Of a stretch of 20,343 nucleotides of DNA, positions 1 through 15,926 are shown in pieces. The translations under genes were made by a program, and so were the position numbers. The notes below the pieces were generated by a model that was given only the letters and a program-made list of their open reading frames with translations, did no database searches and was not told the DNA's origin. Source of the stretch: a virus. The stretch spans positions 1 through 20,343 of IMG/VR virus record IMGVR_UViG_3300025889_001206, one strand, 5' to 3'. Position 1 is the stretch's first letter. Each line of letters begins with the position of its first letter.

Positions 1-3000
1 TGAGCTTATGTCAGCGTCGCTAGAGTTCTGCTCGTTAGAGAAATACGTCAACGCTTCCTCTACTTTAGGCAGGTATTTTAAGTCCGCCAACTTTCTTGCC
101 CATTTAGGCATTGTAGTAGCGTAGGCTCTTATAATGTCTGTCGACATACCCGGTATGTTTTCTGAGCGCATGAAGTTTTTAACGATTGACTGCGCAGGGA
201 ACATGGTCAAGTACGCTTGGTATATGGAGTCTTTTACTTCTTGGCTAGTGTCGGCTGGCAGCTCTGCCATTAACTTACCCACCAAGGAACCAGCGGGTAT
301 GCTACTTGGATTGAACTTTACGTCACTTAGCCGCTCGTAAAATTTATAGCTATTAGGTTTTAACCCCAAAACTTGTACGGCTTTTTCCCGTATAGCCGGA
401 GTTTCAAACTGCAACACAACGCGCTTCATGTTTTGGAAGTCGTTTATGTCTAACACGTATTCCCCAAATCTGAGATTAGGTACGTAACCCTCAACCGGCA
501 TGACTTTCTCAAACTCTTTGCGTAACCGTATTACAGCTTTCTTGCCGTCCCTAAGCTCGGATTCTAACGTAGACCAATATGTATTATACGCAGCGTCAAA
601 ATCTTTGCGCATAGTAAGGTACATATCTCGGACTGGTTTAGGTAAGTTATTAAATATATTGTTTAAACGCTTGTAGTCTTTATTGTTCTTGTAGCGTTCT
701 GCTCTTGTTTTCTCGTCAAGCAAGAAATTTATTTTCGCGAGTCGTGCATCCCTTGCGAGTACACCTGCACGTTTAACTGCTTCTCTGTACTTACCTTCAA
801 GTTTTTCAAACGCCCTTACATTTTTATTGCCTTGGTCAATAATTTTTTCACCGTAGCCCATGCGCTGTTCTTCAGCGTCTATGAGTTTCTTTAGCTCTTC
901 AACTGGCTTTGCAAAGGTTGAATCTGTTGCTGCCCGCAGCTTAAACCTGTCGTATATATGCTCGAGCCTAGCCCCTTTCCACAGTAATTGTTTGATGTTG
1001 TTAGGTGCGCGTTTTAGGAATTGCTCGGCTTCAGCTTTTAGTCTGCCATCAACCTTGTACCTGCCGCTGGCTAGGTCATCCAATACTTCTTGTGCTGTCT
1101 GCGGGGTGCCAAAGAATAGCAGGTCAGGCAACGTAGCTTCTGCTGTACCTGTTACTTCAATCAAGTCTTTTATGTGCTTGTAAGCCGCATCGTAGGCTGT
1201 CTGTTCTTTGCGTATACCAATAAACCGTAGGATAGAGTCGATGATAGTACCTAAGAATGTCTTCTCTCCCTTTGGCGCTTTTATCCTGTTTAGCAACGCC
1301 CTAAACTCAAAATTACCCATGAACTCTGCAACGAACTCTTGCACATCTTGCGCACCGTAAGCATCCCCCATACTGTCTTTAATCTGGGCAAAGAATTTAG
1401 CAAAGTCTTTAGCTATCTGAGAGTTAGGATCGGCAACGGCTTTGGCTAGTCCGGCGTGAGCAAACTCATGTATCAGCACACCTTCGTTTAATCCGTTTTC
1501 AGAACTCAACACGATTGTGTCGTTGACAGTATCGTAGTACCCGCCTGAACCAACCGGCACAGCACGCATAGGCGCTTTAGTCAATAGTGCTTTAGTAGTA
1601 GCAGTCGACACAGCCTTTGCGCCCAACAATACTTGAGAAACTCTTAGTAGCTCGGATAACGCAGTATCTTCAGCAGGGGACAAGCCTAGCAACTTACGTA
1701 TTGCTTGGGTAAATACTGACCATAAAGTGCCTTCTCCTTGGCGATAAGGAATGCTATCAAGCAGTTTTTGGGATTCTTTACTGGAAAGACCCCATGCTAA
1801 TATTTCCTGCTCGTTATCTAAAAAGTTGGCTCTACGTGATACTAGGGTTGCTTCAAAAGGAGTAAGACGCTGCCCGTTTTTCCTTTTTTGTTCTATGCTT
1901 TGTACAACAGCGTTACCCACTTTTATCAAATCATTACGCGCTTGTACGTAATTTTCAGGCCCGACCCCCGCACGTGCTTGCAACAAAATCGCAGAAGTTA
2001 CAGCATGGACAAACTCGTGCGTAATAACTTCAAACGAAGTTCCGGGGTTTCCGGTGTCAACTGCTTTTAAGTATACATAGGTAGGTACGCCTGCTCTTAT
2101 CTTATTATCAACAATCAGGTCTGGATAAGAATAAGCTCCTCTTACCGAAGGGCTAGCTATCTTAGGTATACTAGGAGGAACAGGGTCACCGGCATGAAGT
2201 ATTTTAACTTCTATTGGCCCAAGGCCGTCGCTGTTCAACTCCGCTAGGCGCTGTTTTACGGCAGTTGCAATAACTCGAAGGTCGGGGTCAGGCGCTTTGT
2301 TTATTACAAAGTCAAGAATCCCATCCGTAGTCCCTATACGTTCTATTTCATCCTGCACATATTGGTATTCTTCTTGACTAATCTCGCGATTATTTATACC
2401 CCCGCGCTCGTCTATTACTACTTTGGTAGCCAGATTGAGGGCTAGTAGTTTGTTTAACAGCTTCTGTATATCTTTAGGCTGGTTGGGCAGGGCGTCGCGT
2501 ATCGCTGCGCTTAAGTTGCCACGCTCTAGGTTGGTCTTAGCTTTGTCAGATAGTTTCCGGCCTACATTTTGTGGGCCTGGCAGATTTTCAACATTCCGCA
2601 AACCGCCTATGTTTCCGCCTACAACTGCCCTGAACGTTGTAGGGTCATCGGGCAACTTTGTTATCTTCCCACCCCTTTGCTCAAATTCTTCTAGTTGCTT
2701 TGCTAGTTCTTCGAGAGACTGCTTTTCTTCTACTTGCTCGGCTTTTATTTTCTTTTTGGCGGTACTCGTTTTACTTTTATCTGACTCAATGGTCTCCCCT
2801 TCTGCTAACATTTGTTCTGCTGGCGTGGGTTCCGCAGAAAACTCTTCGAATACTCTGTCAATCTTTACGGCTTTAGCATCAGCTTTGGCTTTAGCTCTAG
2901 CTTGTTTTTCCGTCATGTCTGGGAAGCGACGTTGTATATCCGCCACTTCCGCATCTTCTGCCGCCTTAGCTATTTTGCGCTTGTCTGCTTTGGTTAGTTT

Positions 3001-5280
3001 TGCTTTCTTCTGCCCACGGGAACGTCCCTCAGCGAGTCTCTTTAGGCGCTCTTCTATACGTTTTTGGTTACGTTTGTGGTTAGCCAGTTTTTCTAAAGTG
3101 CCTTCTACATCTGCATTAACTCTATCAACAACACTTCTCCCCCTATCAGATAGTTTAGGAAGCAAGAAGTCTAATACAGCTTGGGCTTCACCTTGGGAGG
3201 CTGTAAACTCACGCTCGGTGTAAGTAGGAGTTGATTCTGCAACCAATACCTCAATAGCAGAGGATGGCTCAAACACATTTAATATTTCTTGCAGCTTCCT
3301 TGCCTGTGGGCTTTCTTCGGTAGTATTCCGGTAGGCGGTCATTACTTCTGCGCTAGCAGTATCTATAGGTCTTGCATTCTCGAACTCAACAAATTCAGGG
3401 GCGGCTTTACCCCGCTCTGCCGTTTCTTCTTTTGCGAAGACTAGACCTGTACCTTCTTCGGTTTCTTCTTCTGGGTCTTCCTCTACTGTCTCTTCGACAA
3501 CGAGTTCTTCGTCTAGCGGGGCTTCCTCTACAGGTTTTTCAGCGACCACCGGCTTTTCCACCGGGGGCACTGTTTCTTCAGCGACCACCGGCTTTTCCAC
3601 CGGGGGCACTGTTTCTTCTTCGACCTGTGTTTCAGCTTGAGGGGCACGGGACTGTATTTCATTCTCTACATTACGGATAGCGTCTTCTACAAGACTTTTT
3701 TGCTGTTGCGGTATTGTTTTTAGAAGTTCTGGTAGTTCAGTCTGGAATCTAAGCAGTTCTTCTTCAGTGCTCCCACGGAGTTCTTCTGGTGTGAACATAG
3801 ACCGGAAAGACTCTTCACTGCTTTGAGTAGGAATCTCTTCGCCTTCTTCTTCAGTCTTAGCCCGTTCTTCTGCGGCTATATCATAAATAGTCCTTTCGTC
3901 GGTCTCAGGCGCAGCTTCGGTAGTGGTTTCTGGTTCGGCAGCGGTAGTAGTGGTTTCTGTAGGCGCAGCTTTCGCCCCTACTTTGTCAACCCCGGGGAAT
4001 TCCGGTGCCTGCCTACCTTGTACGGCGTAACCATAACCCCAAATATCTTCTATTAGTTTGTCGGTTTTGGCTTTGCTTTTTGGGTGCGTCTTCTGGTACT
4101 GCTTAACCGCTTCTATAGCTTGTACGTTCTGGGCAGGATCACTCAAGTCTAGCCCTACTAAAGCACCAGTACCTTTGAACAGTGCAGGAATATTTACACG
4201 GTTCTGGTCTGTCCACTTCTTCCATCCGGCTTCTGAAGTATCTCTAAGGTCTGTGGCAGTTATAGTTTCTGCGGGTGCAGCTTCTTCTGTGGTTGTCTCG
4301 CCCTCAAACAGACTCTTAACTTCAGCATCTTCCTCTACCGTTTGCTGTAGTCTCGGGTCTTGGGGTCTTGTAATACGCTCACCAACACCACGAACAGTAC
4401 CAATACCACCACCGACAAGCCCAGCTAAATACCCAGCTTCAAGGTATTCGGACATAGCTTCATCGCTGTCCACTGGCAAGCCAGCTTGATACCGCTCTAT
4501 AACCTGCTGGGCTATTTCTGTAGGCATTTCTACTAGCGCTGCGCCAGTAGCTCTCTGCGTTACACCACCTAGCAACGAACGGTTGGCAGCGCGTATTAAC
4601 TGATTTCTGGAAAGTTCTGCTGGGGTAGTACCTAATAAGCGGCTAAGTAACCTTCTACCCAGCACAGCCGCACCCCCAACTGCTTCTAACCCTGTCTGGG
4701 CAGCGGCGGCTTTTGCTGCTCTGGCTACATCTACGTCGACTTCTTCACCCCGTGCAATTTGCTCGGCGGCTTGTCTTTCTACGTTGGGGCCAAACAGTTG
4801 GGGATAAATTGCAGCTAGACCACCTATGGTGCCAGCAATAGGTTTGAGTTGTGGTATGGGCATAGCCATTGCGCCCAGCCTACCGCCAGCTATTAAGCTA
4901 GCCAGTACGCCACTTTGACTAGCTCCTGCTCTAGGCGCTTCACTTAGTGCTTGTTTTATAGCGGCAGGTAGACCTTCGGTTCGGTGCGTTTCTCTAATAC
5001 CTTCAAAACTTGGCGCGATTCCGTAGTCTTCTGCTATCTCTTGTCCACGTTGTATACCTTCAACTGCGGCTACGTCTTTGTCACCGAACAAAGATTCAAA
5101 TGCAGTACGATACGCAGAACCCGTAGTGCGTAAACCACGGGCTACTTCTTCCCCGAACGTAGATTTTTTAGGGGCAAATGCTTCAGGAAACTTATCTTGT
5201 ATGAAAGATGAAATTTGCTCTGGAGGCATTGAGTCGGGGAACCGCACTAAATCCCCGTTTGGCATACGTACTACTGGCAT
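1..5280 (-). CDS. Giant polyvalent virion protein with two tandem zincin metallopeptidase-like domains (3' end beyond window)
   Basis: An uninterrupted frame of 1760 codons runs from the ATG at 5280 to the left edge with no stop, so the C-terminus is missing. The start has a good Shine-Dalgarno (AAGGG, 8 nt upstream) that follows the stop of the preceding gene. Visible parts: a short N-terminal conserved stretch (MPVVRMPNGDLVRFPD, 1-45); hydrophobic Gly/Ala helices at about 121-160, 200-215 and 281-300; an acidic, proline/threonine-rich linker at about 300-620 with a perfect 13-residue repeat; a Lys/Glu/Ala-rich helical region at about 700-860; zincin 1 with HEFVHA at 1088-1093 and QEILA at 1158-1162; zincin 2 with HEFAHA at 1271-1276 and QEFVAE at 1314-1319; then a helical region with PNLRFG at 1601-1606, which resembles the PLxRFG motif of giant phage and bacterial proteins. 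Known families: large polyvalent proteins of phages and mobile elements carry such mixed domains and are thought to enter the host with the DNA. That role here is inference. Being last in a virion operon fits it. Confidence 0.88.
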   Translation of the reverse strand, partial: MPVVRMPNGDLVRFPDSMPPEQISSFIQDKFPEAFAPKKSTFGEEVARGLRTTGSAYRTAFESLFGDKDVAAVEGIQRGQEIAEDYGIAPSFEGIRETHRTEGLPAAIKQALSEAPRAGASQSGVLASLIAGGRLGAMAMPIPQLKPIAGTIGGLAAIYPQLFGPNVERQAAEQIARGEEVDVDVARAAKAAAAQTGLEAVGGAAVLGRRLLSRLLGTTPAELSRNQLIRAANRSLLGGVTQRATGAALVEMPTEIAQQVIERYQAGLPVDSDEAMSEYLEAGYLAGLVGGGIGTVRGVGERITRPQDPRLQQTVEEDAEVKSLFEGETTTEEAAPAETITATDLRDTSEAGWKKWTDQNRVNIPALFKGTGALVGLDLSDPAQNVQAIEAVKQYQKTHPKSKAKTDKLIEDIWGYGYAVQGRQAPEFPGVDKVGAKAAPTETTTTAAEPETTTEAAPETDERTIYDIAAEERAKTEEEGEEIPTQSSEESFRSMFTPEELRGSTEEELLRFQTELPELLKTIPQQQKSLVEDAIRNVENEIQSRAPQAETQVEEETVPPVEKPVVAEETVPPVEKPVVAEKPVEEAPLDEELVVEETVEEDPEEETEEGTGLVFAKEETAERGKAAPEFVEFENARPIDTASAEVMTAYRNTTEESPQARKLQEILNVFEPSSAIEVLVAESTPTYTEREFTASQGEAQAVLDFLLPKLSDRGRSVVDRVNADVEGTLEKLANHKRNQKRIEERLKRLAEGRSRGQKKAKLTKADKRKIAKAAEDAEVADIQRRFPDMTEKQARAKAKADAKAVKIDRVFEEFSAEPTPAEQMLAEGETIESDKSKTSTAKKKIKAEQVEEKQSLEELAKQLEEFEQRGGKITKLPDDPTTFRAVVGGNIGGLRNVENLPGPQNVGRKLSDKAKTNLERGNLSAAIRDALPNQPKDIQKLLNKLLALNLATKVVIDERGGINNREISQEEYQYVQDEIERIGTTDGILDFVINKAPDPDLRVIATAVKQRLAELNSDGLGPIEVKILHAGDPVPPSIPKIASPSVRGAYSYPDLIVDNKIRAGVPTYVYLKAVDTGNPGTSFEVITHEFVHAVTSAILLQARAGVGPENYVQARNDLIKVGNAVVQSIEQKRKNGQRLTPFEATLVSRRANFLDNEQEILAWGLSSKESQKLLDSIPYRQGEGTLWSVFTQAIRKLLGLSPAEDTALSELLRVSQVLLGAKAVSTATTKALLTKAPMRAVPVGSGGYYDTVNDTIVLSSENGLNEGVLIHEFAHAGLAKAVADPNSQIAKDFAKFFAQIKDSMGDAYGAQDVQEFVAEFMGNFEFRALLNRIKAPKGEKTFLGTIIDSILRFIGIRKEQTAYDAAYKHIKDLIEVTGTAEATLPDLLFFGTPQTAQEVLDDLASGRYKVDGRLKAEAEQFLKRAPNNIKQLLWKGARLEHIYDRFKLRAATDSTFAKPVEELKKLIDAEEQRMGYGEKIIDQGNKNVRAFEKLEGKYREAVKRAGVLARDARLAKINFLLDEKTRAERYKNNKDYKRLNNIFNNLPKPVRDMYLTMRKDFDAAYNTYWSTLESELRDGKKAVIRLRKEFEKVMPVEGYVPNLRFGEYVLDINDFQNMKRVVLQFETPAIREKAVQVLGLKPNSYKFYERLSDVKFNPSSIPAGSLVGKLMAELPADTSQEVKDSIYQAYLTMFPAQSIVKNFMRSENIPGMSTDIIRAYATTMPKWARKLADLKYLPKVEEALTYFSNEQNSSDADISS
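1150..1560 (-). other. Zincin-like metallopeptidase domain 2 of the giant protein
   Basis: This covers residues about 1241-1377. GGYYDTVNDTIVLS (1246-1259) is followed by GVLIHEFAHAGLA (H1271, E1272, H1275), then DVQEFVAEFMGN, with E1315 as candidate third zinc ligand. The order (beta strand, HExxH helix, E-x-x-A-E helix) matches zincin domains in phage and mobile-element polyvalent proteins. Spacing from HExxH to the third ligand is about 44 residues, against 71 in domain 1, so domain 1 carries an insertion. Confidence 0.72.
1680..2160 (-). other. Zincin-like metallopeptidase domain 1 of the giant protein
   Basis: This covers residues about 1041-1200. It has GAYSYPDLIVDN (1048-1059), as in the strand before the active helix of many zincins, then T-HEFVHAV (H1088, E1089, H1092), which gives two zinc ligands and the catalytic glutamate. 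About 70 residues later comes NEQEILAW, where E1159 is a candidate third ligand. A hydrophobic helical tail follows (about 1187-1220). All expected catalytic residues are present, so nothing suggests decay. The assignment rests on motifs only. Confidence 0.7.
3541..3618 (-). repeat. Perfect 39-bp tandem duplication in the giant gene
   Basis: Two identical 39-base units (3541-3579 and 3580-3618) encode two copies of a 13-residue unit EETVPPVEKPVVA in the acidic linker. Further degenerate VEE/EET units lie beside it. Perfect identity suggests a recent slippage or recombination event that kept frame. Confidence 0.95.
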
Positions 5281-7158: not shown

Positions 7159-8682
7159 TTAGGTTTTGCCCAGCAAACCAAATTCTTTAAGGAAATCTAA
7201 AATACCGCCAGCACCACTCATAAAGTTACTTAATCCACTAGGTTCGGCATACTGGTAAGACTGCGTGGAAATCGGCAAGCCTTGTAGCAACGACTGCATA
7301 TACTGAACTTGCTTGTACGGATAGTCACGTTCTTCTTCAAACTGCGCAATGTCAGCCAGTATACCTTCTTGTTCGATAGCACGCTGCTGGGCACCACCTT
7401 GTTGCTGGGCTTGGAGCGCTTGCAAACCATACTGCCTTTCTTGGTTGAACATATCTGCGGCTTTGTCGTAGGCTTGCTGCATCCCTGTGCCGTATATATT
7501 GGCAAGGTTTCTTTGTAATGCACCGGATAGCTCAGATTCGGCTATGGCTTGGCGACTACCACCGTATGCACCTGCCCTGCCGTACCTGCTTTGGAGATTT
7601 TGCTGTTCTATCTGTGCCTGACGACGCGCCTCTTCCATTTGTGGACGAAGTGCTAAATCCATATACGGGTTCATATACTGCTGGGCTACAGACTGCTGTG
7701 CTTGCGGGGCTTGCATTCCTATAACTTGCCTAGCCATGCCATTACCCATATCGACTACTGGGCCTTCGTAGCCAAGGTTTCCTTGCTGTGGCGCTTGCGG
7801 GGCTTGCGGGGCTTGCATTCCCCAACTTTCAATCTGTTGACGCAGGGCACCGCCAATTGGCATAGAAGTGGCATAGTCCGGTTTTTGGGCTTCCGCACTC
7901 TCCATGAGCTGTTTGCGTATGGCATCAGTCATTCCCGGCGGACCTTTCCGACCGCCTTCAATCTGTTGACGCATGGCATCATCAACGTTACCAAATAGGC
8001 TGCCAGTTGGGACCATGTCCGCTGCAGTAATTGTGCCCGGCGGGAAAAGTGAACTTCTGGGGACATATTTTTGTCCAGTTCCGTCGGTATACCCACCTTG
8101 CGGTGCTTTTGGCTGGTTCTGCTGAATCCAATTAACAGATTCTTGAATAGACGCATTTGGGTTTGCTTCTTGCCACTTTTTAAACGAATCCTGAAAGGCG
8201 TCATCAGCGGCAGTACGCTCAACCACCATGTCGCCGCGCATCGAGATCGACGGGCCTTTCCGACCGCCTTCAATCTGTTGACGTAGGGCATCGCCAAAGT
8301 CACCGCCAACTGGCACCATGTCCATTGAAGTAATCGTGCCGGGCGGAGCAAGTGAACTTCTGGGGACATATTTTTGCCCGGTTGCATCGGTATACCCACC
8401 TTGAGGTGGTTGTGCTGGGCCATAACTAGGCATACTTCCCGCAAAAGACCCAACTCTATTGGCAGTTGGTATTGTAAGGTTAGCCAAACCTTGGAACGCC
8501 TGTCTTTGCAGCCCAGACGGGCCAGCAGTTAGCGGGCCTTGGTATGCCGTGTACGGCATACTACCAAGCGCGGCTCCTCTACCGAGCATTTCAGTGACAT
8601 ACGGGCCAACCCAAGGGGAAAGGGAGGAAGACTGCCCTAATTGAGGACCCGCTGTTGTGCCGCCTTCTTGGTATCTTTTCAT
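7159..8682 (-). CDS. Putative virion structural/ejection protein, Gln-rich with internal duplication (507 aa)
   Basis: The ATG at 8682 has GAGG 5 nt upstream, overlapping the TGA of the previous gene, so translation is probably coupled. The protein starts MKRYQEGG, much like the MKRFKRGG of the gene at 10767-12206. A unit of about 53 residues is repeated at 92-144 and 193-248 (GGYTDxTGQKYVPRSSL through RQQIEGGRKGP), and a partial third copy occurs at 276-287. The C-terminal half (about 335-507) is Gln/Ala-rich helix with RAGAYGGSRQAIAESEL and ERDYPYKQVQYMQSLLQGLP. From memory, the AYGGSRQ and EERDYPYKQ pattern is common in virion proteins of marine podovirus-like phages; the molecular role is not known to me. 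It ends in a short hydrophobic helix (ILDFLKEFGLLGKT). Confidence 0.82.
   Translation of the reverse strand: MKRYQEGGTTAGPQLGQSSSLSPWVGPYVTEMLGRGAALGSMPYTAYQGPLTAGPSGLQRQAFQGLANLTIPTANRVGSFAGSMPSYGPAQPPQGGYTDATGQKYVPRSSLAPPGTITSMDMVPVGGDFGDALRQQIEGGRKGPSISMRGDMVVERTAADDAFQDSFKKWQEANPNASIQESVNWIQQNQPKAPQGGYTDGTGQKYVPRSSLFPPGTITAADMVPTGSLFGNVDDAMRQQIEGGRKGPPGMTDAIRKQLMESAEAQKPDYATSMPIGGALRQQIESWGMQAPQAPQAPQQGNLGYEGPVVDMGNGMARQVIGMQAPQAQQSVAQQYMNPYMDLALRPQMEEARRQAQIEQQNLQSRYGRAGAYGGSRQAIAESELSGALQRNLANIYGTGMQQAYDKAADMFNQERQYGLQALQAQQQGGAQQRAIEQEGILADIAQFEEERDYPYKQVQYMQSLLQGLPISTQSYQYAEPSGLSNFMSGAGGILDFLKEFGLLGKT
7939..8409 (-). repeat. Duplicated 53-56-codon unit inside the 507-aa gene
   Basis: Copies lie at 8251-8409 and 7939-8106. 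They share exact blocks: 29 bases identical at 7943-7971 and 8255-8283, and 27 bases identical at 8047-8073 and 8350-8376. Between the copies is a unique segment of about 48 codons. A partial third copy of the LRQQIE end lies near 7820-7855. Confidence 0.9.
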
Positions 8683-8689
8683 ACTAACC

Positions 8690-10765
8690 TCACGCCAGAT
8701 ATTTTTGGGGATTTATCTGTCTCCCCTGTCTGGTTGTTCCTGTACGCGCCTTGCGCACCCTGTCCATCATAGAGTACAAGTTTCTTGCACCCGCGTCTGA
8801 ATTACCATTACCTAGATGACTTACTACGTCAGCCGGTATTACAAACTCACCATCACTAAGCCGAGCCGGTTCTCTACCATCTATTGTAGCCGGTACCTTG
8901 TCAGCCATACCATCAGTAGCGCCGCCCAAGTAATAACCACGACTTAATGAAGCTATTCCACCTTTAGCATAATACTTATTATATACACGTTGTACATTTG
9001 CTAACGGCATACCTGTAACTTCAGCTAGGCGTTCGGGAGATATTCCGTAGTTCTTCATAGCTTTTACAAGGCGCTCATAACCTTCAGGAGTGTTGCCGTA
9101 TGCGCTTTGTATTTTGCTTACTGCCGAAACTATATCTGCATCCGATACACCCCCAATACCCGCTGATGGTGCAGGTGTAGTCGTAGTTGTAGTAGGCGCA
9201 GGTGGTGGTGGCGGAGTCACCGGTTTAGCCACAGGTGTAGTAGGCGCAGGTGGTGGTGGAGTTACCGGTTTAGGTGGCGGAGTTACCGGTTTAGGTGGCG
9301 GAGTTGTAGCCGCAGGTGTAGTGGTCTTGGGCGGAGTAGTAGCCGCAGGTGTAGTGGTCTTGGGTGGAGCTTCCGGTTTAGCCGCAGGTGGTGGTGGCGG
9401 TGGGTCTGAAATTACCACAGGTGCCGGTGTAGGTGGTTTAGTAGGTGTAGGAGCAAACACACCAGTTTTATTGTAGTAGTCATCTACGTACTTACTAACC
9501 GTTTCTGCTGGCACACCAATAATTCCTGCAAGCCTGTCTGGGGATATACCATAGTTTGTCATGGCCTTTATCAGGCGCTCGTATCCAGCGGGGGTTGTAC
9601 CATACTGCTCTTTTATACCCTTTACGGCTGTACGTATTTCTGTATCCGTCGGGCCTGTAGGTGTAGTGGTCTTGGGTGGAGCTTCCGGTTTAGCCGCAGG
9701 TGGTGGTGGCGGTGGGTCTGAAATTACCACAGGTGCCGGTGGCGGCGGAGTTGTAGCCGCAGGTGTAGTGGTCTTGGGCGGAGTAGTAGCCGCAGGTGTA
9801 GTGGTCTTGGGTGCAGTAATAGCCGCAGTAGCTGTAGTGGTCTTGGGCGGAGTGCCTCTGTAGTATTTATCGTCAGTGCCTCGCCAAGCCCCGTCTTCGT
9901 TAATTAAAGGTTTACCGGTAAGGGGGCTAATGTAAGGTTTTATGTCGGCTCCTGCCTCTGGGTATTTTGCATTGAACGCATCAGTTTTAGCTTTTTCCGC
10001 TCTTGCTTCATCGGCTATTCTTTTGTTCTCAATGTTTTCGCGGGCTGTAACTAAATCGCTGACGGGTATGCCCAAATACTTAGCTGCTGTTGTGTCATCA
10101 ATATTAAACCGATCAAAGATTTCTATCTGTTCAGGCAGCGTATTTACCCCTGCCAGTATTTGGTTTAGTGTGTTATACGCTGGCTCGTACATATCAGTGC
10201 CGCTTCCGGGTATTACCCCGCCACTAATCGTTTGCGGGGGTTCAAAACCTTCTTTGTACGGGGTTAATGTAAGAGCAGGCAACCCTTCATCACGGGGTAC
10301 AATTTTATTGCCAGTTGCGGGATCAAAATACGGTTCGGTCGGTGTAGTCGGTGTAGTACTCGCAGCCGTTTTTGCCGCTTCAGCGCCAAAAAAACTCTTT
10401 AACAAGGCTTCGTTAATCATTGTTTGCTGTTGTTGTGCAGCAAGTGCGTCAGCATTTAGTTTGTCTAAATACTCTTGCCCCATTACTCTTGGGGTACCTG
10501 CCGCGTTCATACCGGGGGATGTATACTGCACATTGGTAAAATAACTTCTACCCGCTTCACCGGGACGCCTGCCTGTAGAATCAAATGCGTTCGGTACAAG
10601 ACTACGTTGCGCTGTGTACTCAGGTATACCACCGGTATAACCTTGAGAGCCTTGAGATTGCCCACTACCACCAGCAACACCGAGAAGGCCGCCAATACCG
10701 CCAGCTAAAGCTGCGCCTACGCCAGTTAGTTCACCGTCTTTGTAAAAAGTATCGTACCAAGGCAT
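8690..10765 (-). CDS. Putative virion protein with HTH-like helical modules in Pro/Thr-rich linkers (691 aa)
   Basis: The ATG at 10765 has a strong GGAG 8 nt upstream and begins 1 nt after the previous stop. The N-terminus has a hydrophobic Gly/Ala segment (VGAALAGGIGGLLGVAGG, 16-33). Two helical modules of about 61 residues (373-433 and 541-601) are about half identical. Each contains YGISPxRLAxxxGxPxxxV, which looks like a helix-turn-helix; a more diverged relative lies at 191-245 (NIDDTTAAKYLGIPVSDLV). Pro/Thr-rich repeats (304-371, 438-537) separate them. The C-terminal 90 residues (601-691) carry YAKGGIASLSRGYYLGG, ARLSDGEFVIPADVVSHLGN and MMDRVRKARTGTTRQG, which I recall as a conserved tail of structural-region proteins in marine phages. 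Function is unknown; scaffold, internal or fibre-like roles are all possible. Confidence 0.82.
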   Translation of the reverse strand: MPWYDTFYKDGELTGVGAALAGGIGGLLGVAGGSGQSQGSQGYTGGIPEYTAQRSLVPNAFDSTGRRPGEAGRSYFTNVQYTSPGMNAAGTPRVMGQEYLDKLNADALAAQQQQTMINEALLKSFFGAEAAKTAASTTPTTPTEPYFDPATGNKIVPRDEGLPALTLTPYKEGFEPPQTISGGVIPGSGTDMYEPAYNTLNQILAGVNTLPEQIEIFDRFNIDDTTAAKYLGIPVSDLVTARENIENKRIADEARAEKAKTDAFNAKYPEAGADIKPYISPLTGKPLINEDGAWRGTDDKYYRGTPPKTTTATAAITAPKTTTPAATTPPKTTTPAATTPPPPAPVVISDPPPPPPAAKPEAPPKTTTPTGPTDTEIRTAVKGIKEQYGTTPAGYERLIKAMTNYGISPDRLAGIIGVPAETVSKYVDDYYNKTGVFAPTPTKPPTPAPVVISDPPPPPPAAKPEAPPKTTTPAATTPPKTTTPAATTPPPKPVTPPPKPVTPPPPAPTTPVAKPVTPPPPPAPTTTTTTPAPSAGIGGVSDADIVSAVSKIQSAYGNTPEGYERLVKAMKNYGISPERLAEVTGMPLANVQRVYNKYYAKGGIASLSRGYYLGGATDGMADKVPATIDGREPARLSDGEFVIPADVVSHLGNGNSDAGARNLYSMMDRVRKARTGTTRQGRQINPQKYLA
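9297..9813 (-). repeat. Permuted exact direct repeats (70 bp and 83 bp) in Pro/Thr-rich coding region
   Basis: An 83-base block is identical at 9347-9429 and 9659-9741. A separate 70-base block is identical at 9297-9366 and 9744-9813. In the first site the blocks overlap by 20 bases with the 70-base block to the left; in the second site the order is reversed. They encode the P-A-A-T-T-P-P-K-T-T and PVVISDPPPPPPAAKPEAPPK stretches on either side of the first HTH-like module. Confidence 0.95.
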
Positions 10766-10766
10766 C

Positions 10767-12206
10767 TTATCTTCTCCGTAACAAACGCAAAATCTCGTTT
10801 GTCAAGTCGTAATCGTAATTATTCTGTATCATACCACCGCTACGTGCGTATACATAGGGGCCGCGTTTGTTCTTCTTGGCTTCTTCTTCTTCTTCTTCTT
10901 CAGTCCTACCCATAGCCGGGTTAAATATACTGCTCCCCGCAATATCGTATAGGTAATCTATATCTACAGTCGGCCCCGGCGCACCTTGGTGTACTGCTAC
11001 GCCCTGTGTGTATCCGGCCCCACCGCCGCCACCGCCGCCAGTCGGGGTTTCGTCCGGGGTTTCGTCCGGGGTTTCGTCCGAGGTAGTTTCATCCTTGTTT
11101 AAGTCTAAATACTCGTCCTCATCAGAAGTGGTGGTTGCTGGAGTTTTATTAAGGTCGGTTCCATCATCGACTTTAGTGGTTCCATCATTGACTTTAGTGG
11201 TTCCATCATCGACTTTAGTGGTTCCATCATTGACTTTAGTGGTTCCATCATCGACTTTAGTGGTTCCATCATTGACTTTAGTGGTTCCACCATTGGTTCC
11301 CTTGTTCGGGTCATCGGAAGTATTGTCACCTATAACAACCTTGGGGTCTTCTTCCACTTCTTCCTCTCCGGTAAGGCCGGTTTTTTCGTTTAACCCTTCT
11401 TGTCTTAGTATCTCAAGTATTTCTTCCATAGTGGGGTATCTATAAGTTATACCACCCTGCCCGTCGTCGACTTGTTCGACCCCACTTAAAATTAAATCAA
11501 TAACAGGATCGCCAGTCCTAACACCGACTCGCGCGGTTCCACCAGTCCAAGTAGAGCCAGCAGTTCCCGGCACCCCTATAGCCCCTACCGGTTTACCTTC
11601 AGGAACACCCCAAGTAAGAGTAGCGCCACCGGGGCCAACCGTTGTGAGATCAGGAAGAGGTATCCCGGTATAGCTGGATGCCCTAGACAACAATGTTCCT
11701 ACAGCATCAAGAGGCCCATCACCCGGTACGTTTAAACCAGCGTCTCTAGCTGCCTGCCGCGCTTGTCGTACATTTTCTCTAGCCTGAGCAACTTCACTGA
11801 AATATGCGTCTATATCGCTTGTGGTTTCATTTACTATTTCCCCCGTATCCGGGTCTATCTTTACATCTCTTTGTCGGTACAGCCCTTCCAGAACAGCTTC
11901 GGCTGTTTCTATGTCTGCTAATAAATCCAACTCGTCTTGTTTTTTAGCTTCCTCATCCAACTTTGCTTGTTGTTCGGGGGTGTAGTACGGCTTTCCAAGT
12001 TCATCAAGTATGTCACGCTGCACATCAGTAACAGCCCCTCTAGCGGCCTCGTCTGCCCATTGTCTTTCTCTAGCTGTTTGGGGGGTATATCCAAATAGCC
12101 CCACCGAAGGGTCTATATACTCTGGGAAGTAGCCCCCAAGTTGGTTAGAGTTATAGTTCACATCCATTGTGTATGAGGGTGCGCCCCCGCGTTTAAATCT
12201 CTTCAT
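10767..12206 (-). CDS. Putative virion protein with acidic Asp/Thr repeat array (479 aa)
   Basis: The ATG at 12206 has the Shine-Dalgarno AGGTGA, which includes part of the TAG stop of the previous gene. It starts MKRFKRGG, like the MKRYQEGG of the 507-aa protein. Residues 55-160 are charged helix (DVQRDILDELGKPYYTPEQQ and following). Residues 160-250 are Gly/Pro-rich with a possible beta region. Residues 308-349 are six 7-residue units alternating TKVNDGT and TKVDDGT, followed by DETP repeats (377-389), a run of seven glycines, a run of seven glutamates (436-442), and a tail YARSGGMIQNNYDYDLTNEILRLLRRR-like end that is basic. No known enzyme motif is seen. Context and composition suggest a structural or ejected virion protein. 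Confidence 0.8.
   Translation of the reverse strand: MKRFKRGGAPSYTMDVNYNSNQLGGYFPEYIDPSVGLFGYTPQTARERQWADEAARGAVTDVQRDILDELGKPYYTPEQQAKLDEEAKKQDELDLLADIETAEAVLEGLYRQRDVKIDPDTGEIVNETTSDIDAYFSEVAQARENVRQARQAARDAGLNVPGDGPLDAVGTLLSRASSYTGIPLPDLTTVGPGGATLTWGVPEGKPVGAIGVPGTAGSTWTGGTARVGVRTGDPVIDLILSGVEQVDDGQGGITYRYPTMEEILEILRQEGLNEKTGLTGEEEVEEDPKVVIGDNTSDDPNKGTNGGTTKVNDGTTKVDDGTTKVNDGTTKVDDGTTKVNDGTTKVDDGTDLNKTPATTTSDEDEYLDLNKDETTSDETPDETPDETPTGGGGGGGAGYTQGVAVHQGAPGPTVDIDYLYDIAGSSIFNPAMGRTEEEEEEEAKKNKRGPYVYARSGGMIQNNYDYDLTNEILRLLRRR
11044..11079 (-). repeat. Three 12-bp tandem units encoding DETP repeats
   Basis: Three perfect copies of ggggtttcgtcc encode a DETP-type tetrapeptide repeat just before a seven-glycine run. 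This is simple in-frame slippage material beside the 42-bp array. Confidence 0.93.
11157..11282 (-). repeat. Six 21-bp tandem units forming a 42-bp alternating repeat
   Basis: Six exact-length units of 21 bases differ at one base in strict alternation (atcatcg / atcattg), so the real repeating unit is 42 bases, present three times. The single change switches Asp (GAT) to Asn (AAT) in the encoded TKV[D/N]DGT unit. A degenerate seventh unit starts at 11283. Confidence 0.97.
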
Positions 12207-12217: not shown

Positions 12218-12865
12218 CGGTGGGGTCGGCAGCGTGTCAGGCAACGCTGATACTAGACTAACCGCCATAACAGCAGACGGTATACCGGGGTGGGGGCTAG
12301 ACGGCGCGGCGGCTTCAAGAATGGCTGTCGTATCGGAAGTAGCCCATATCATCTCCAAATACTGTCCTGTGGTCATATCTATATTAAAGTTCCACGTTAC
12401 CGGGACGGCATCCCCAGAGCCGGACAATACGTACTGCTTAGTGGAGTAGCCAATATCAGTACCGTTACGCCTAATCCACAAGTACACATTCTTAGGCGAC
12501 GCAGAGACACTATACACAGACCCAGTAAACTGGAAATTATATATACCTGAGTATTCTACGGTTATCTGTGAGCTAGACCCGCCGTTTATTGTAACACCAT
12601 GATTTAAATAAGTATTCTCAAATTGAACCGGGTATCCTGTGTTTGTAGTGGCGGCTGTCTGGTCTACAATAGAGTAGAAAAGCGCGTTAGCTTGGTCTAG
12701 GAACCTACCGCCCAAGTGCCCCGTCACGCTGTTTACGGCGTTAGATGCGCTATTAAAATACAAGCGTAATACGTTATTAAGGTTGTCGTGGTGTGTTTTA
12801 TCCGGCCCCATACCCGCAACAGGCAGGGCGGGGGTAGCAACACGACCAAGGAGACCTTCTGGCAT
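12215..12865 (-). CDS. Small beta-rich structural protein, jelly-roll-like (216 aa)
   Basis: The ATG at 12865 overlaps the stop of the tail-nozzle-like gene as TAATG. The N-terminal part has HDNLNNVLRLYFNSASNAVNSV (26-46), a helix I recall from small structural proteins of marine podovirus-like phages. Residues about 70-205 alternate beta strands (QITVEYSGIYNFQFTGSVYS, NVYLWIRRNGTDIGYSTKQY, YLEMIWATSD), a pattern typical of a C1q/TNF-like jelly roll as used in phage fibre tips or decoration proteins. No signal peptide or enzyme motif is present. A receptor-binding, fibre or head-decoration role is inferred from fold pattern and position next to the tail protein. Confidence 0.78.
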   Translation of the reverse strand: MPEGLLGRVATPALPVAGMGPDKTHHDNLNNVLRLYFNSASNAVNSVTGHLGGRFLDQANALFYSIVDQTAATTNTGYPVQFENTYLNHGVTINGGSSSQITVEYSGIYNFQFTGSVYSVSASPKNVYLWIRRNGTDIGYSTKQYVLSGSGDAVPVTWNFNIDMTTGQYLEMIWATSDTTAILEAAAPSSPHPGIPSAVMAVSLVSALPDTLPTPP

Positions 12866-15045
12866 TACCCTCTCCTCCCATCAGGCCGCATATCAAAACG
12901 GGGCGAACCTAATTGCCAAGCCACTCCTTCAGCGGTAGACGCTACTTTAATAGCCATCTGCCTGCCACGAACTCGTATATATACTTGCCCTGTAAACTCC
13001 TCAATCGGCACTGTAGCAGAACGCGTTACAGAAGCTGAACTGTTACCCCCTTCGGACAACGGCGATTTATACCCGGAACCAGAATTATCCATTGGAGATA
13101 ACGTCATACTGATTGAGGGGCTAGGCGTAGTCGACCCCACAAAAGTAACATCTGGGAGCATACGGGTTATGAAATTGAATTGATGCCCATCGTCTAAGTC
13201 AAACTCAGAAGATGTTACGTAAGCCTCAATCGGCAGCGTAGAATCTGTTTCGTTATCGTCGTTACCAAGCTCATGGTAGACAAGATTATTGCTATAAGTA
13301 GCCGCTATAGGATAGTCACGTAGCCCGCTGTCTAACCACGCTGTACGCGCTAAAGTACCGTAATACCAGATGTTTTCCACATAGTTATAGACTGCGTATC
13401 TATCGTTTGTAGTTGCGCTAGAAGAACAGTAGAACCACCATATTTCGTGGAATCCTTCGTTTAGGCCGGCATAAACTTGTTCATACTGTTCGTTATTAAA
13501 ATCAGTAAATATATACTTTCTTATGTTGCAAACTAGGGGTTTTACTGTACCGTCGTACATATAAAATTTATCTTTCCCCATCCAAAACAATGTGTTACCA
13601 GCAAATATAGCTGCGTTTTGCCCGGCTATGGATATGTTAGTACCTAATAGCTGCGCCCCCCATACTTCCGGCGCACCGAGATATTGCAACCCGTAGACCG
13701 CAGAATTAGTTATAACAAATAATTCTTGCCTAGCCTGTAAAGCGGTGATGATTTCACTACCTTGTGACAAACGTAAACTACCTGCTTGGTTTAATGCTGT
13801 AGGTGTCCACTCGCTCAAATCTTCCTGTGCTGACCAACGTATTAACATCGGGTCTAATGTAGTTGTGTATATTTCGTTGCATCCAAAACAAAAAGCAAAA
13901 CGATAAATATCCGAAACTAGAGTAACATTAAGGACTTGCGGTACATTTAACCCTTGGTAAGCACCTACCACAGAAGCACCACCATTACCAACATCAGATG
14001 CGTTAGCCAATACCGGAGTTCCATCAGAATCGGTAGCTTCAACCGTATAACTATTAGCATCAATAACCGTAGCTATCTCGTACTGATGGTTAAGAACGGC
14101 GGCTGTTATGTTACCGCCGAGAGACACAGCCCCAGAGAAAGTCACTAACTGCCCAACTATGGCTCCGTGTGCGGTATCTGTAACGGTAAGGGTTGCGTCT
14201 CCATTAACGGCAGCAAAAGTAACGTCTCCAGCGGCTGTAGTGCTTACCGTAATATCTTTAACATAAACACCGCGTGTGCTGGTTCCGTTAGTAGCATCCC
14301 AATAAAACAACGCCCCACCACGGGGGGCAAAAACCAAATCTTCCCCGAAATTACCTTGACTCCATAGCCTTATATAATTAGCAGTAATAGTACCAAGACC
14401 CCAAGGGCCAAGACCGTATGCGCCGCCGCCCCAACCAATAAGCGGTACGGCGTAAGATTGTCCTGTGTTTATCTGGTAAGCACCTACTACGGAAGCCCCG
14501 CCATTACCGGTATCAGATGCGTTGGCGAGCACGGTAGCGCCAGACGTATCTTTGGCCTCTATGGTGTAATTATCGTCGTCAACTATTGTAGCGATGGCGT
14601 ATTCTTGGTTAAGAACAACGGCGGTTATGTTGCCACCTAAAGATACCGCACCGGAGAAAGTAACGTAATCACCAGCTATCGCCCCATGCGCAGTATCTGT
14701 AACGGTAAGGGTTGCGTCTCCATTAACGGCAGCAAAAGTAACGTCTCCAGCGGCTGTAGTTAGCCTAATAGGGGTAATATCTTTGTATAAACCGCCCTGC
14801 TCAATATAGAATTTAAGGTTAGTGCCGACGCCTAACAAATTTTTAGCTGACAGTGTCACCCAATTCCAAAGCGAGCGGCAAACTCCGAGGTAGGTATTAG
14901 TAGAGAAACGCTCCCAACCACCTATTTTTTCTGGAGAACCCTGCCGGAACCGGACTTTATCGGTTTCATACCAGCCGCCTTCAGTGGTATACCGAGTATT
15001 TTCTCTGTTTACGCCGGGACGTATTTGTATCTTTTTAAGCGGCAT
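12865..15045 (-). CDS. Tail nozzle/tubular-like structural protein with duplicated beta domain (726 aa)
   Basis: The start MPLKKIQIRPGVNRENTRYTTEGGW is typical, from memory, of a large structural protein in marine podovirus-like phages. Repeated short beta stretches (LVFAPRGGALFYWD, ALQARQELFVITNSAVYGLQ, AIFAGNTLFWMGKDKFYMYDG, RYAVYNYVENIWYYG) look like propeller blades, as in the podovirus tail proteins T7 gp12 and P22 gp10. A 95-residue module (DVTFAAVNGDATLTVTDTAHGA start, NGGASVVGAYQ end) occurs twice, at 97-191 and 269-363, inserted between the propeller-like strands. The gene overlaps the lysozyme gene by 11 nt and the jelly-roll gene by 1 nt. A tail hub or nozzle role is likely but not proven; an adhesin-like baseplate role is an alternative. 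Confidence 0.78.
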   Translation of the reverse strand: MPLKKIQIRPGVNRENTRYTTEGGWYETDKVRFRQGSPEKIGGWERFSTNTYLGVCRSLWNWVTLSAKNLLGVGTNLKFYIEQGGLYKDITPIRLTTAAGDVTFAAVNGDATLTVTDTAHGAIAGDYVTFSGAVSLGGNITAVVLNQEYAIATIVDDDNYTIEAKDTSGATVLANASDTGNGGASVVGAYQINTGQSYAVPLIGWGGGAYGLGPWGLGTITANYIRLWSQGNFGEDLVFAPRGGALFYWDATNGTSTRGVYVKDITVSTTAAGDVTFAAVNGDATLTVTDTAHGAIVGQLVTFSGAVSLGGNITAAVLNHQYEIATVIDANSYTVEATDSDGTPVLANASDVGNGGASVVGAYQGLNVPQVLNVTLVSDIYRFAFCFGCNEIYTTTLDPMLIRWSAQEDLSEWTPTALNQAGSLRLSQGSEIITALQARQELFVITNSAVYGLQYLGAPEVWGAQLLGTNISIAGQNAAIFAGNTLFWMGKDKFYMYDGTVKPLVCNIRKYIFTDFNNEQYEQVYAGLNEGFHEIWWFYCSSSATTNDRYAVYNYVENIWYYGTLARTAWLDSGLRDYPIAATYSNNLVYHELGNDDNETDSTLPIEAYVTSSEFDLDDGHQFNFITRMLPDVTFVGSTTPSPSISMTLSPMDNSGSGYKSPLSEGGNSSASVTRSATVPIEEFTGQVYIRVRGRQMAIKVASTAEGVAWQLGSPRFDMRPDGRRG
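13957..14757 (-). repeat. Duplicated 95-codon module in the tail-nozzle-like gene
   Basis: Copies lie at 14473-14757 and 13957-14241 (residues 97-191 and 269-363). Their 5' ends share 68 identical bases (14174-14241 and 14693-14760), while the rest has diverged at many third positions and some residues. The uneven divergence suggests gene conversion between copies. Confidence 0.92.
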
Positions 15046-15457
15046 ATTCCCCAGACCTAATCATGTCAGTTAGTTCGATAGCCCTACCTTTGACTTGCGT
15101 TGCCCACCTGCTGTCTAAAAAATGTTCAGCAGCCGCCTTAAAATCTCCAGAACTCATTGATTCTAAAGCGTTTTTAAACTGGAGCAATCTTGGCAAACCA
15201 AGGTTGAATCCTAACGAAATCATGGCATCTTTACGGGCTTCATTAAGCCCAGAAAACCAAGGAAATGCACCGCTTAACTCTTTGATTACGCGGGAAATAT
15301 CGTTCTGTAACAGGTAGTTTACCTCATCATCAGATAAACCCAAACCTGTTTTTGAAACGTTTCTGCCTACGCCAATAGTCTCAAGACCCTCGGTGTCTAG
15401 GTAAACGTGTTTCTCTACGCCTTCATGTCGACGTAGTAGTTCAATCAGCTTGTCCAT
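15035..15457 (-). CDS. T4-type lysozyme endolysin (glycoside hydrolase family 24)
   Basis: This enzyme hydrolyses the glycan strands of peptidoglycan at the end of infection. The catalytic set of T4 lysozyme is intact: E12 in RRHEG, D21 in YLDTEG and T27 in LETIGVG, against E11, D20 and T26 in T4. I chose the ATG at 15457 (140 aa, MDKLIELLRRHEG) because it aligns with the T4 N-terminus. The frame is open further to a TTG at 15478, but that start lacks a Shine-Dalgarno and adds 7 residues with no counterpart. The protein is a little shorter than T4 lysozyme (164). No signal peptide or SAR segment is seen, so export must depend on the holin encoded just upstream, whose 3' end it overlaps by 17 nt. 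Its own 3' end overlaps the tail-nozzle-like gene. Confidence 0.93.
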   Translation of the reverse strand: MDKLIELLRRHEGVEKHVYLDTEGLETIGVGRNVSKTGLGLSDDEVNYLLQNDISRVIKELSGAFPWFSGLNEARKDAMISLGFNLGLPRLLQFKNALESMSSGDFKAAAEHFLDSRWATQVKGRAIELTDMIRSGEYAA

Positions 15458-15926
15458 TGCTTGAATGGGATGCTCCAAAGTAGAAGCTAATTACAGCCGA
15501 AACCAACCCGCCAAGGTAGCCAAGGACAAGGTTAATCAATTCCATCGAGTTCTGCTCTGGCGGCATTATCGTTACCATAGAAATGTAGGAGCAGAAAAAT
15601 AGCACCATAATCAGGCCGATAGACTTGGCTGTCCAGTCACGGGCAAAGTGCTTACGGGCGTCCTGCTTGTCTTTTGTCTCCAAGGCGAACAAATCTACGT
15701 CGAGTTCCTTCATTTTGGCCTCGAACTTGAGTTCAGCCTTCTTGATCTCTGCAAGCTGTTCCGGGGTGACCGTCTCAAACGCCGTCTCGATGGCCTGTGG
15801 GGTCGGTTCACAACCCAGTACCCCTGCCAAGACTTGACCCGCCATGCCGCCCAGAGGGCCTCCCATAGCCGTACCGATGGTGGGCGCAATACCCCCTATC
15901 AGTCCTTTTAACTTGTCGAATTTCAT
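15441..15926 (-). CDS. Holin of the three-TM gene-transfer-agent type (161 aa)
   Basis: It probably forms the inner-membrane lesion that releases the lysozyme. The pattern matches the family of three-TM holins described for gene transfer agents (Pfam GTA_holin_3TM): an N-terminal Gly/Ala-rich hydrophobic segment with GTAMGGPLGGMAGQVLAGVLG (about 10-38), a charged helical middle (PEQLAEIKKAELKFEAKMKE, then TKDKQDARKHFARDW), two strong membrane helices (102-121 and 128-151) and a polar end after YFGASHSS. Its ATG overlaps the stop of the 40-aa peptide gene as ATGA. No clear Shine-Dalgarno precedes it, which fits translational coupling. Confidence 0.85.
   Translation of the reverse strand: MKFDKLKGLIGGIAPTIGTAMGGPLGGMAGQVLAGVLGCEPTPQAIETAFETVTPEQLAEIKKAELKFEAKMKELDVDLFALETKDKQDARKHFARDWTAKSIGLIMVLFFCSYISMVTIMPPEQNSMELINLVLGYLGGLVSAVISFYFGASHSSNGQAD

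What the first reader, a model, noticed from the sequence alone, without database searches (positions are those of the whole stretch)
1150..2160. Two tandem, complete zincin domains in one giant phage protein
Within about 340 residues of one open frame there are two HExxH sites (HEFVHA at 1088, HEFAHA at 1271). Each is preceded by a G-[AG]-Y strand motif and followed by a Q-E-[IF]-[LV]-A helix and a similar hydrophobic helical tail. The shared order suggests an old domain duplication, with an insertion in the first copy (71 versus 44 residues from HExxH to the third ligand). Polyvalent phage proteins usually show one such metallopeptidase. Two intact copies could mean two substrates, for example self-processing of the polyprotein and a host target after injection. 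Motifs are seen; duplication and roles are inferred.
Basis: partly seen in the sequence, partly recalled or inferred. Interest (0 to 1): 0.75.

Follow-up and report, generated by a model that had tools for sequence, protein, structure and literature searches.

The report
Two proteases in phage injection protein
A giant protein that an environmental phage probably injects into its host carries two related zinc-protease domains, apparently one set inside the other; multi-protease phage proteins were already known, but this pairing was found only here and in one near-identical relative.

Summary
In detail: the 1760-residue open frame (window 1-5280, minus strand, cut by the window end) has HEFVH at 1088 and HEFAH at 1271, with glutamates 71 and 44 residues on. 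Both domains belong to one zincin family: their profiles match each other, and solved phage ejection proteins (phiKMV-type internal virion protein 9sfn for D1, phiM1 tetrameric ejection protein 8vb2 for D2), N4 virion RNA polymerase, lethal factor and Pro-Pro endopeptidase. HExxH is kept in 41 of 41 family domains collected without using that motif. The inference of a local duplication is wrong: a tree of 71 domains puts D1 with phiKMV-type and D2 with another branch, and a clade of the two is rejected (p 0.00014). Single-copy D2 relatives carry an N-terminal helix-strand segment; here its best match lies upstream of D1, so D1 was probably inserted inside D2 (moderate evidence). The protein is most likely an ejection protein ending in a PLxRFG domain. 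Polyvalent proteins with one to five such peptidases were described in 2017, so this is a new variant of a known kind. Substrates are unknown. By-product: the 'endolysin' domain of phiKMV- and phiM1-type ejection proteins is probably a zincin.

The parts
1..5280 (-). Giant gene (1760 aa in window, cut at the window end; complete relative L002 is 2305 aa): probable ejection / polyvalent virion protein
   Evidence: C-terminal PLxRFG family in L002 355 bits, cut-off 100
4291..5274 (-). N-terminal region, residues 3-330, parts of it shared (33-39% identity) with other giant phage proteins that carry a single D1- or D2-type domain
2413..2577 (-). Residues 902-956: helix-strand segment that matches the N-terminal segment of single-copy D2 modules (probable first part of D2)
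   Evidence: scan of all segments: +20 bits, next best +7.5; null maximum 16.0 in 24 proteins; z 5.9 with L068
1576..2358 (-). D1: complete phiKMV-type zincin module, residues 975-1235
   Evidence: 9sfn_G E 1.6e-80 by profile, N4 vRNAP 4e-16; AF2 pLDDT 71.5
2005..2019 (-). HEFVH of D1 (1088-1092)
1804..1806 (-). E1159, predicted third zinc ligand of D1
   Evidence: invariant in A1 and A4
1081..1572 (-). D2 core: zincin module, residues 1237-1400
   Evidence: 8vb2_A 3e-09, lethal factor 4.4e-05, Pro-Pro endopeptidase 0.025 by profile; AF2 pLDDT 73.2
1456..1470 (-). HEFAH of D2 (1271-1275)
1336..1338 (-). E1315, predicted third zinc ligand of D2
   Evidence: invariant in A2 and A5
16..489 (-). 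Start of the C-terminal PLxRFG (tail-700) domain, cut by the window end
   Evidence: NF032893 67.7 bits on the truncated frame
7159..8682 (-). Neighbour: weak match to 'DNA ejection protein' phrog_4287
   Evidence: E 1.7e-05
12865..15045 (-). Neighbour: virion structural (stabilization-type) protein phrog_3287; best relative in freshwater phage DSL-LC04, whose gene at the end of the same module is named DNA transfer protein
15035..15478 (-). Neighbour: separate phage lysozyme
   Evidence: PF00959 3.7e-13

Best explanation
The gene encodes the large ejection (pilot) protein of a short-tailed phage, in the role of T7 gp16 / phiKMV gp37 / phiM1 gp48, ending in a PLxRFG domain. It carries two zinc-peptidase domains of one lethal-factor/Pro-Pro-endopeptidase-like family. 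D2 is the usual module of this protein type. D1, of the branch found singly in phiKMV-type ejection proteins, was acquired later and most likely sits inside D2, in the variable loop between D2's first strand and its strand-HExxH core. Shown: both motifs, homology of the domains, separate ancestry, conservation. Moderately supported: the nested order. Inferred: both bind zinc and cut proteins, and act after ejection in the periplasm or cytoplasm on the ejected complex or on host proteins.
For: Motifs. D1 and D2 families homologous: hhalign E 4.9e-18; with all columns up to the third ligand removed E 1.2e-12, reversed control 0.11. D1 profile to 9sfn_G 1.6e-80 and N4 vRNAP 4e-16; D2 profile to 8vb2_A 3e-09, 9sfn_G 2.3e-08, lethal factor 4.4e-05, 23sg gp10 1.9e-04. 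Foldseek of D2: lethal factor, 8vb2 (prob 0.80), MATCAP, IrrE near the top, though all at E above 0.08. Foldseek of D1 in BFVD: phiKMV-type internal protein, TM 0.75, E 3.4e-11. 41 of 41 family domains found through a C-terminal motif keep HExxH. Tree and AU test p 0.00014. Nested order: segment scan, null and positive controls, pairwise z 5.9 against -0.4, first-strand-to-HExxH distance 313 residues here against 25-74 in 28 single-copy relatives. After ejection rather than in the capsid: phiM1 TEP was modelled through this domain in the mature virion (PMC11440229); N4 vRNAP is packaged unprocessed (PMC5512222).
Against: No protein data. D1's model has low-confidence strands and no zincin match in the PDB library. 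The nested order rests on a 55-residue segment; MAFFT on mixed rows put D2's N-terminal segments partly on D1's own N-terminal helices, and L068's own segment is not recovered by the same scan. The D2 model, cut without the upstream segment, formed a strand at 1230-1234 that could replace the first strand. The ejection role rests on homology and gene order.
Confidence: 0.58

Rival explanations
1. Plain head-to-tail pair: D1 was added before an intact D2, and residues 902-956 are a remnant of another module, not part of D2.
For: AF2 gave D2 a first strand at 1230-1234 just after D1; MAFFT places D2 N-terminal segments ambiguously.
Against: The stretch between D1 and D2 shows no similarity to D2 N-terminal segments (mean z -0.04) and adds nothing to the D2 profile score; 902-956 adds 20 bits, above every spurious maximum in 24 proteins.
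Confidence: 0.3
2. Private tandem duplication inside this protein.
For: D1 and D2 align over the domain with shared tail helices.
Against: Tree places them with different single-copy relatives; clade rejected, p-AU 0.00014.
Confidence: 0.04
3. The zincin folds are structural parts of the ejectosome, or bind zinc without cutting proteins.
For: Iyer et al. (PMC5512222) report that the N4 vRNAP region spanning this domain is needed for encapsidation and that the protein is packaged unprocessed; no activity has been reported in the papers read.
Against: HExxH including the catalytic Glu is kept in 41 of 41 unselected family domains and in the phage relatives found by tblastn; a purely structural role would not need the Glu.
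Confidence: 0.18
4. The peptidases process the giant protein itself before or inside the capsid, as proposed for P1 DdrB.
For: Proposed theme for polyvalent proteins (PMC5512222); a low-complexity linker region precedes the domains.
Against: Solved relatives were modelled or packaged as long chains (PMC11440229, PMC5512222).
Confidence: 0.2

Closest known systems
Zincin-like MPTase domains of polyvalent proteins (Iyer et al. 2017, PMC5512222)
   Same: HExxH plus Glu on a later helix; giant multidomain phage proteins; one to five copies per protein, about 8% with more than one
   Different: There, multiple copies are often separated by other domains; here two branches lie together and probably nested
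phiKMV gp37-type internal virion protein (PDB 9sfn_G)
   Same: D1 and its N-terminal helices align end to end, 1.6e-80
   Different: One domain only; different C-terminus; 1337 aa
phiM1 tetrameric ejection protein gp48 (PDB 8vb2) and relatives (Peat1, Axy09)
   Same: D2-type domain in a virion ejection protein
   Different: One domain; authors call it endolysin/exotransglycosidase-like; different C-terminus
N4-type virion RNA polymerase C1 domain (9pnr)
   Same: D1-type domain, 4e-16; Vibrio phage PG11 vRNAP has two HExxH domains
   Different: Fused to an RNA polymerase, absent here
PLxRFG (tail-700) proteins, e.g. L068 and about 40 IMG/VR relatives
   Same: D2 and the C-terminal 900 aa, in some also the N-terminal region
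   Different: They have D2 only; none of 63 sampled has two family domains

Membership tests
Zincin-like MPTase of polyvalent proteins | HExxH in an active-site helix | tested here: met
   Both sites; helices in both models
Zincin-like MPTase of polyvalent proteins | Third ligand Glu in a following helix | tested here: met
   E1159, E1315 in predicted helices and invariant
Zincin-like MPTase of polyvalent proteins | Three-stranded sheet with N-terminal helix before the active-site helix | tested here: inconclusive
   D2 model three strands; D1 model only two strands of three or more residues, low confidence between them; D1 no PDB zincin match
Zincin-like MPTase of polyvalent proteins | Similarity to lethal-factor-type zincins | tested here: met
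   D2 profile to lethal factor 4.4e-05 and PPEP 0.025; D1 only through D2 and 9sfn
Zincin-like MPTase of polyvalent proteins | Zinc-dependent proteolysis | not testable with these tools
   needs protein
Ejection protein (T7 gp16 / TEP type) | Homology to solved ejection proteins | tested here: met
   zincin domains only; the rest of the chain does not match them
Ejection protein (T7 gp16 / TEP type) | Gene position at the end of the virion module next to other ejection genes | tested here: met
   phrog_4287 ejection-type neighbour; DSL-LC04 synteny with DNA transfer protein
Ejection protein (T7 gp16 / TEP type) | Packaged in the capsid and ejected | not testable with these tools
   no virion proteomics
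PLxRFG domain protein (NF032893) | Score above curated cut-off | tested here: met
   complete relative L002 355 bits against cut-off 100; window copy truncated, 67.7 bits
Private tandem duplication | Two copies sister to each other | tested here: not met

The most novel reading that the evidence does not exclude
A zinc peptidase domain inserted inside another member of its own family, giving one ejected phage protein two active sites of separate ancestry that may open or position each other and cut different substrates during infection.
Probability: 0.4. Interest if true: 0.55.

Novelty: new variant of a known kind. Interest (0 to 1): 0.38.

Why it matters
What the peptidase domains in ejection proteins do is not settled in the papers read here. 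A natural protein with two branches side by side, and single-copy relatives of each in isolated phages, allows each to be removed and its effect compared. The same comparison indicates that the domain called endolysin in phiKMV- and phiM1-type ejection proteins is a zincin, which would change how those ejectosome structures are read.

Tried and rejected
Chance motif: rejected. Private duplication: rejected. Assembly chimera: rejected, second contig. Pfam gave no family above cut-off for either domain. Direct tblastn to phages found D1 relatives well, D2 only at 1e-2 to 1e-6. Patterns for the D1-D2 pair found no other case in viral contigs or genome contigs, within a narrow spacing range and a fixed motif. 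Joint alignment for one model of both domains misplaced rows, so the domains were modelled separately. Rfam: nothing.

Full report
What is there. The window is an IMG/VR virus record of 20,343 bases. The minus-strand frame 5280-1 encodes 1760 residues and runs off the window. It contains HEFVH at 1088 and HEFAH at 1271, the only HExxH in all six frames of the window; shuffles of the protein give 0.0072. The third-ligand candidates E1159 and E1315 follow at 71 and 44 residues. A second contig, L002, holds a complete 2305-residue version with the same pair, 98% identical over the two domains and 85% over the whole window frame.

What the domains are. Searched alone, D1 (residues 975-1235) matches the phiKMV-type internal virion protein in PDB 9sfn (1.4e-21 from one sequence; 1.6e-80 as a profile) and the HExxH-bearing C1 domain of N4 virion RNA polymerase (4e-16; HExxH there noted in PMC12633501). 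D2 (core 1237-1400) matches, as a profile, the phiM1 tetrameric ejection protein 8vb2 (3e-09), 9sfn (2.3e-08), lethal factor (4.4e-05), gp10 of 23sg (1.9e-04) and Pro-Pro endopeptidase (0.025). The two families are homologous: BLASTP 0.004 between the window's own domains, hhalign 4.9e-18, and 1.2e-12 for the helices after the third ligand alone, against 0.11 for a reversed control. Models show the same order of helices after HExxH, with an extra helix in D1. D2's model has zincins and 8vb2 near the top of the PDB list, with weak E-values. D1's model had no zincin match in the PDB library (9sfn does not appear there and may not be in that copy), but matched the phiKMV-type internal protein in BFVD at TM 0.75. 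So the zincin identity of D2 is supported by sequence and weakly by structure; that of D1 by sequence homology.

Are they active. HExxH-based patterns would make conservation circular, so relatives were also collected with a C-terminal motif only. Of 63 such proteins with enough upstream sequence, 41 carry a family domain and all 41 keep HExxH; none has two family domains, 6 have a second HExxH elsewhere. The phage relatives found by tblastn keep HExxH in the family domain and a Glu motif. Between window and L002, dN/dS is 0.08 in D2 and 0.38 in D1, the latter on only 22 changes. This indicates selection on the catalytic residues but does not show activity.

Where they came from. A tree of 71 domains groups window D1 with HESVHA, HELVHA and phiKMV-type single-copy domains (94/91) and window D2 with L068 (100/96) and the HExAHA branch (92/90). 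Holding window D1 and D2 together costs 76 log units, p-AU 0.00014. So the pair is not a private duplication. About 40 giant IMG/VR proteins share D2 and the C-terminal 900 residues with L002, some also the N-terminal region; L022, L023 and L037 share the N-terminal region and D1 instead. The window protein combines the two.

Nested order. Single-copy D2 modules begin with a helix-strand segment (consensus G-[DN]-L-x-x-A-L ... T-K-[VI]-x-V), 25-74 residues before HExxH. Joining every 55-residue stretch of the window protein to the D2 core in silico and scoring with a D2 profile gives a clear best at 902-956 (+20 bits; next +7.5), upstream of D1; the stretch just before the D2 core gives nothing. 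In 24 single-copy relatives the true segment gains 25-58 bits in 23, and the best spurious gain is 16.0. Pairwise, L068's segment matches 902-960 at z 5.9 and the stretch between D1 and D2 at -0.4. The distance from that segment to HEFAHA is 313 residues, longer than the single-copy median of 36 by about the size of D1. I read this as insertion of D1 into D2, at about 60%; the segment is short, and the failed L068 control are against.

How it probably works. The gene stands at the end of a virion module: stabilization-type protein, lysozyme, weak ejection-protein match, and in the nearest isolated phage, DSL-LC04, the last gene of the same module is named DNA transfer protein. The C-terminus is a PLxRFG domain. 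By homology it is packaged in the head and ejected. Because phiM1 TEP is modelled through this domain in the virion (PMC11440229) and N4 vRNAP is packaged unprocessed (PMC5512222), I favour action after ejection. Substrates are unknown.

What is known. Iyer et al. (PMC5512222) described zincin-like MPTase domains in polyvalent phage proteins, one to five per protein, about 8% with more than one, and proposed self-processing or host targets. Two in one protein is therefore not new; the combination and probable nesting are. The phiM1 paper (PMC11440229) calls residues 268-528 of gp48 endolysin/exotransglycosidase-like, and database records call phiKMV-type proteins 'internal virion protein with endolysin domain'; the sequences carry HEAAHA/HEAVHA plus Glu, and Pfam finds no lysozyme in phiKMV gp37. 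These domains are probably zincins.

Noticed in passing
PDB 8vb2_A about 377-514; phiKMV gp37 (L003 4999-9012): Domain annotated as endolysin/exotransglycosidase in ejection proteins carries HExxH plus Glu and matches zincin profiles; the name looks wrong.
   Followed up: partly
window about 2580-3120 (residues 720-900): Sharp drop to 44-59% nucleotide identity with L002 between blocks of about 97%: mosaic middle segment just before the zincin block.
   Followed up: partly
L014, L006, L005, L046: Other phage proteins with two HExxH domains: Vibrio phage PG11 virion RNA polymerase, Xanthomonas phage SAC 2341-aa protein, crAss-like cr10_1 open frame, IMG/VR L046.
   Followed up: partly
window 13955-14241 and 14474-14760: Direct repeat of 287 nt (77%) inside the stabilization-type gene.
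   Followed up: no
window 11136-11324: 21-nt tandem repeat coding for a (TTKVDDG/TTKVNDG) array in the 10767-12206 gene.
   Followed up: no
window 9180-9849: Proline/threonine-rich repeats between two helix-turn-helix-like segments (residues about 396-430 and 565-597) in the 8690-10765 gene.
   Followed up: no
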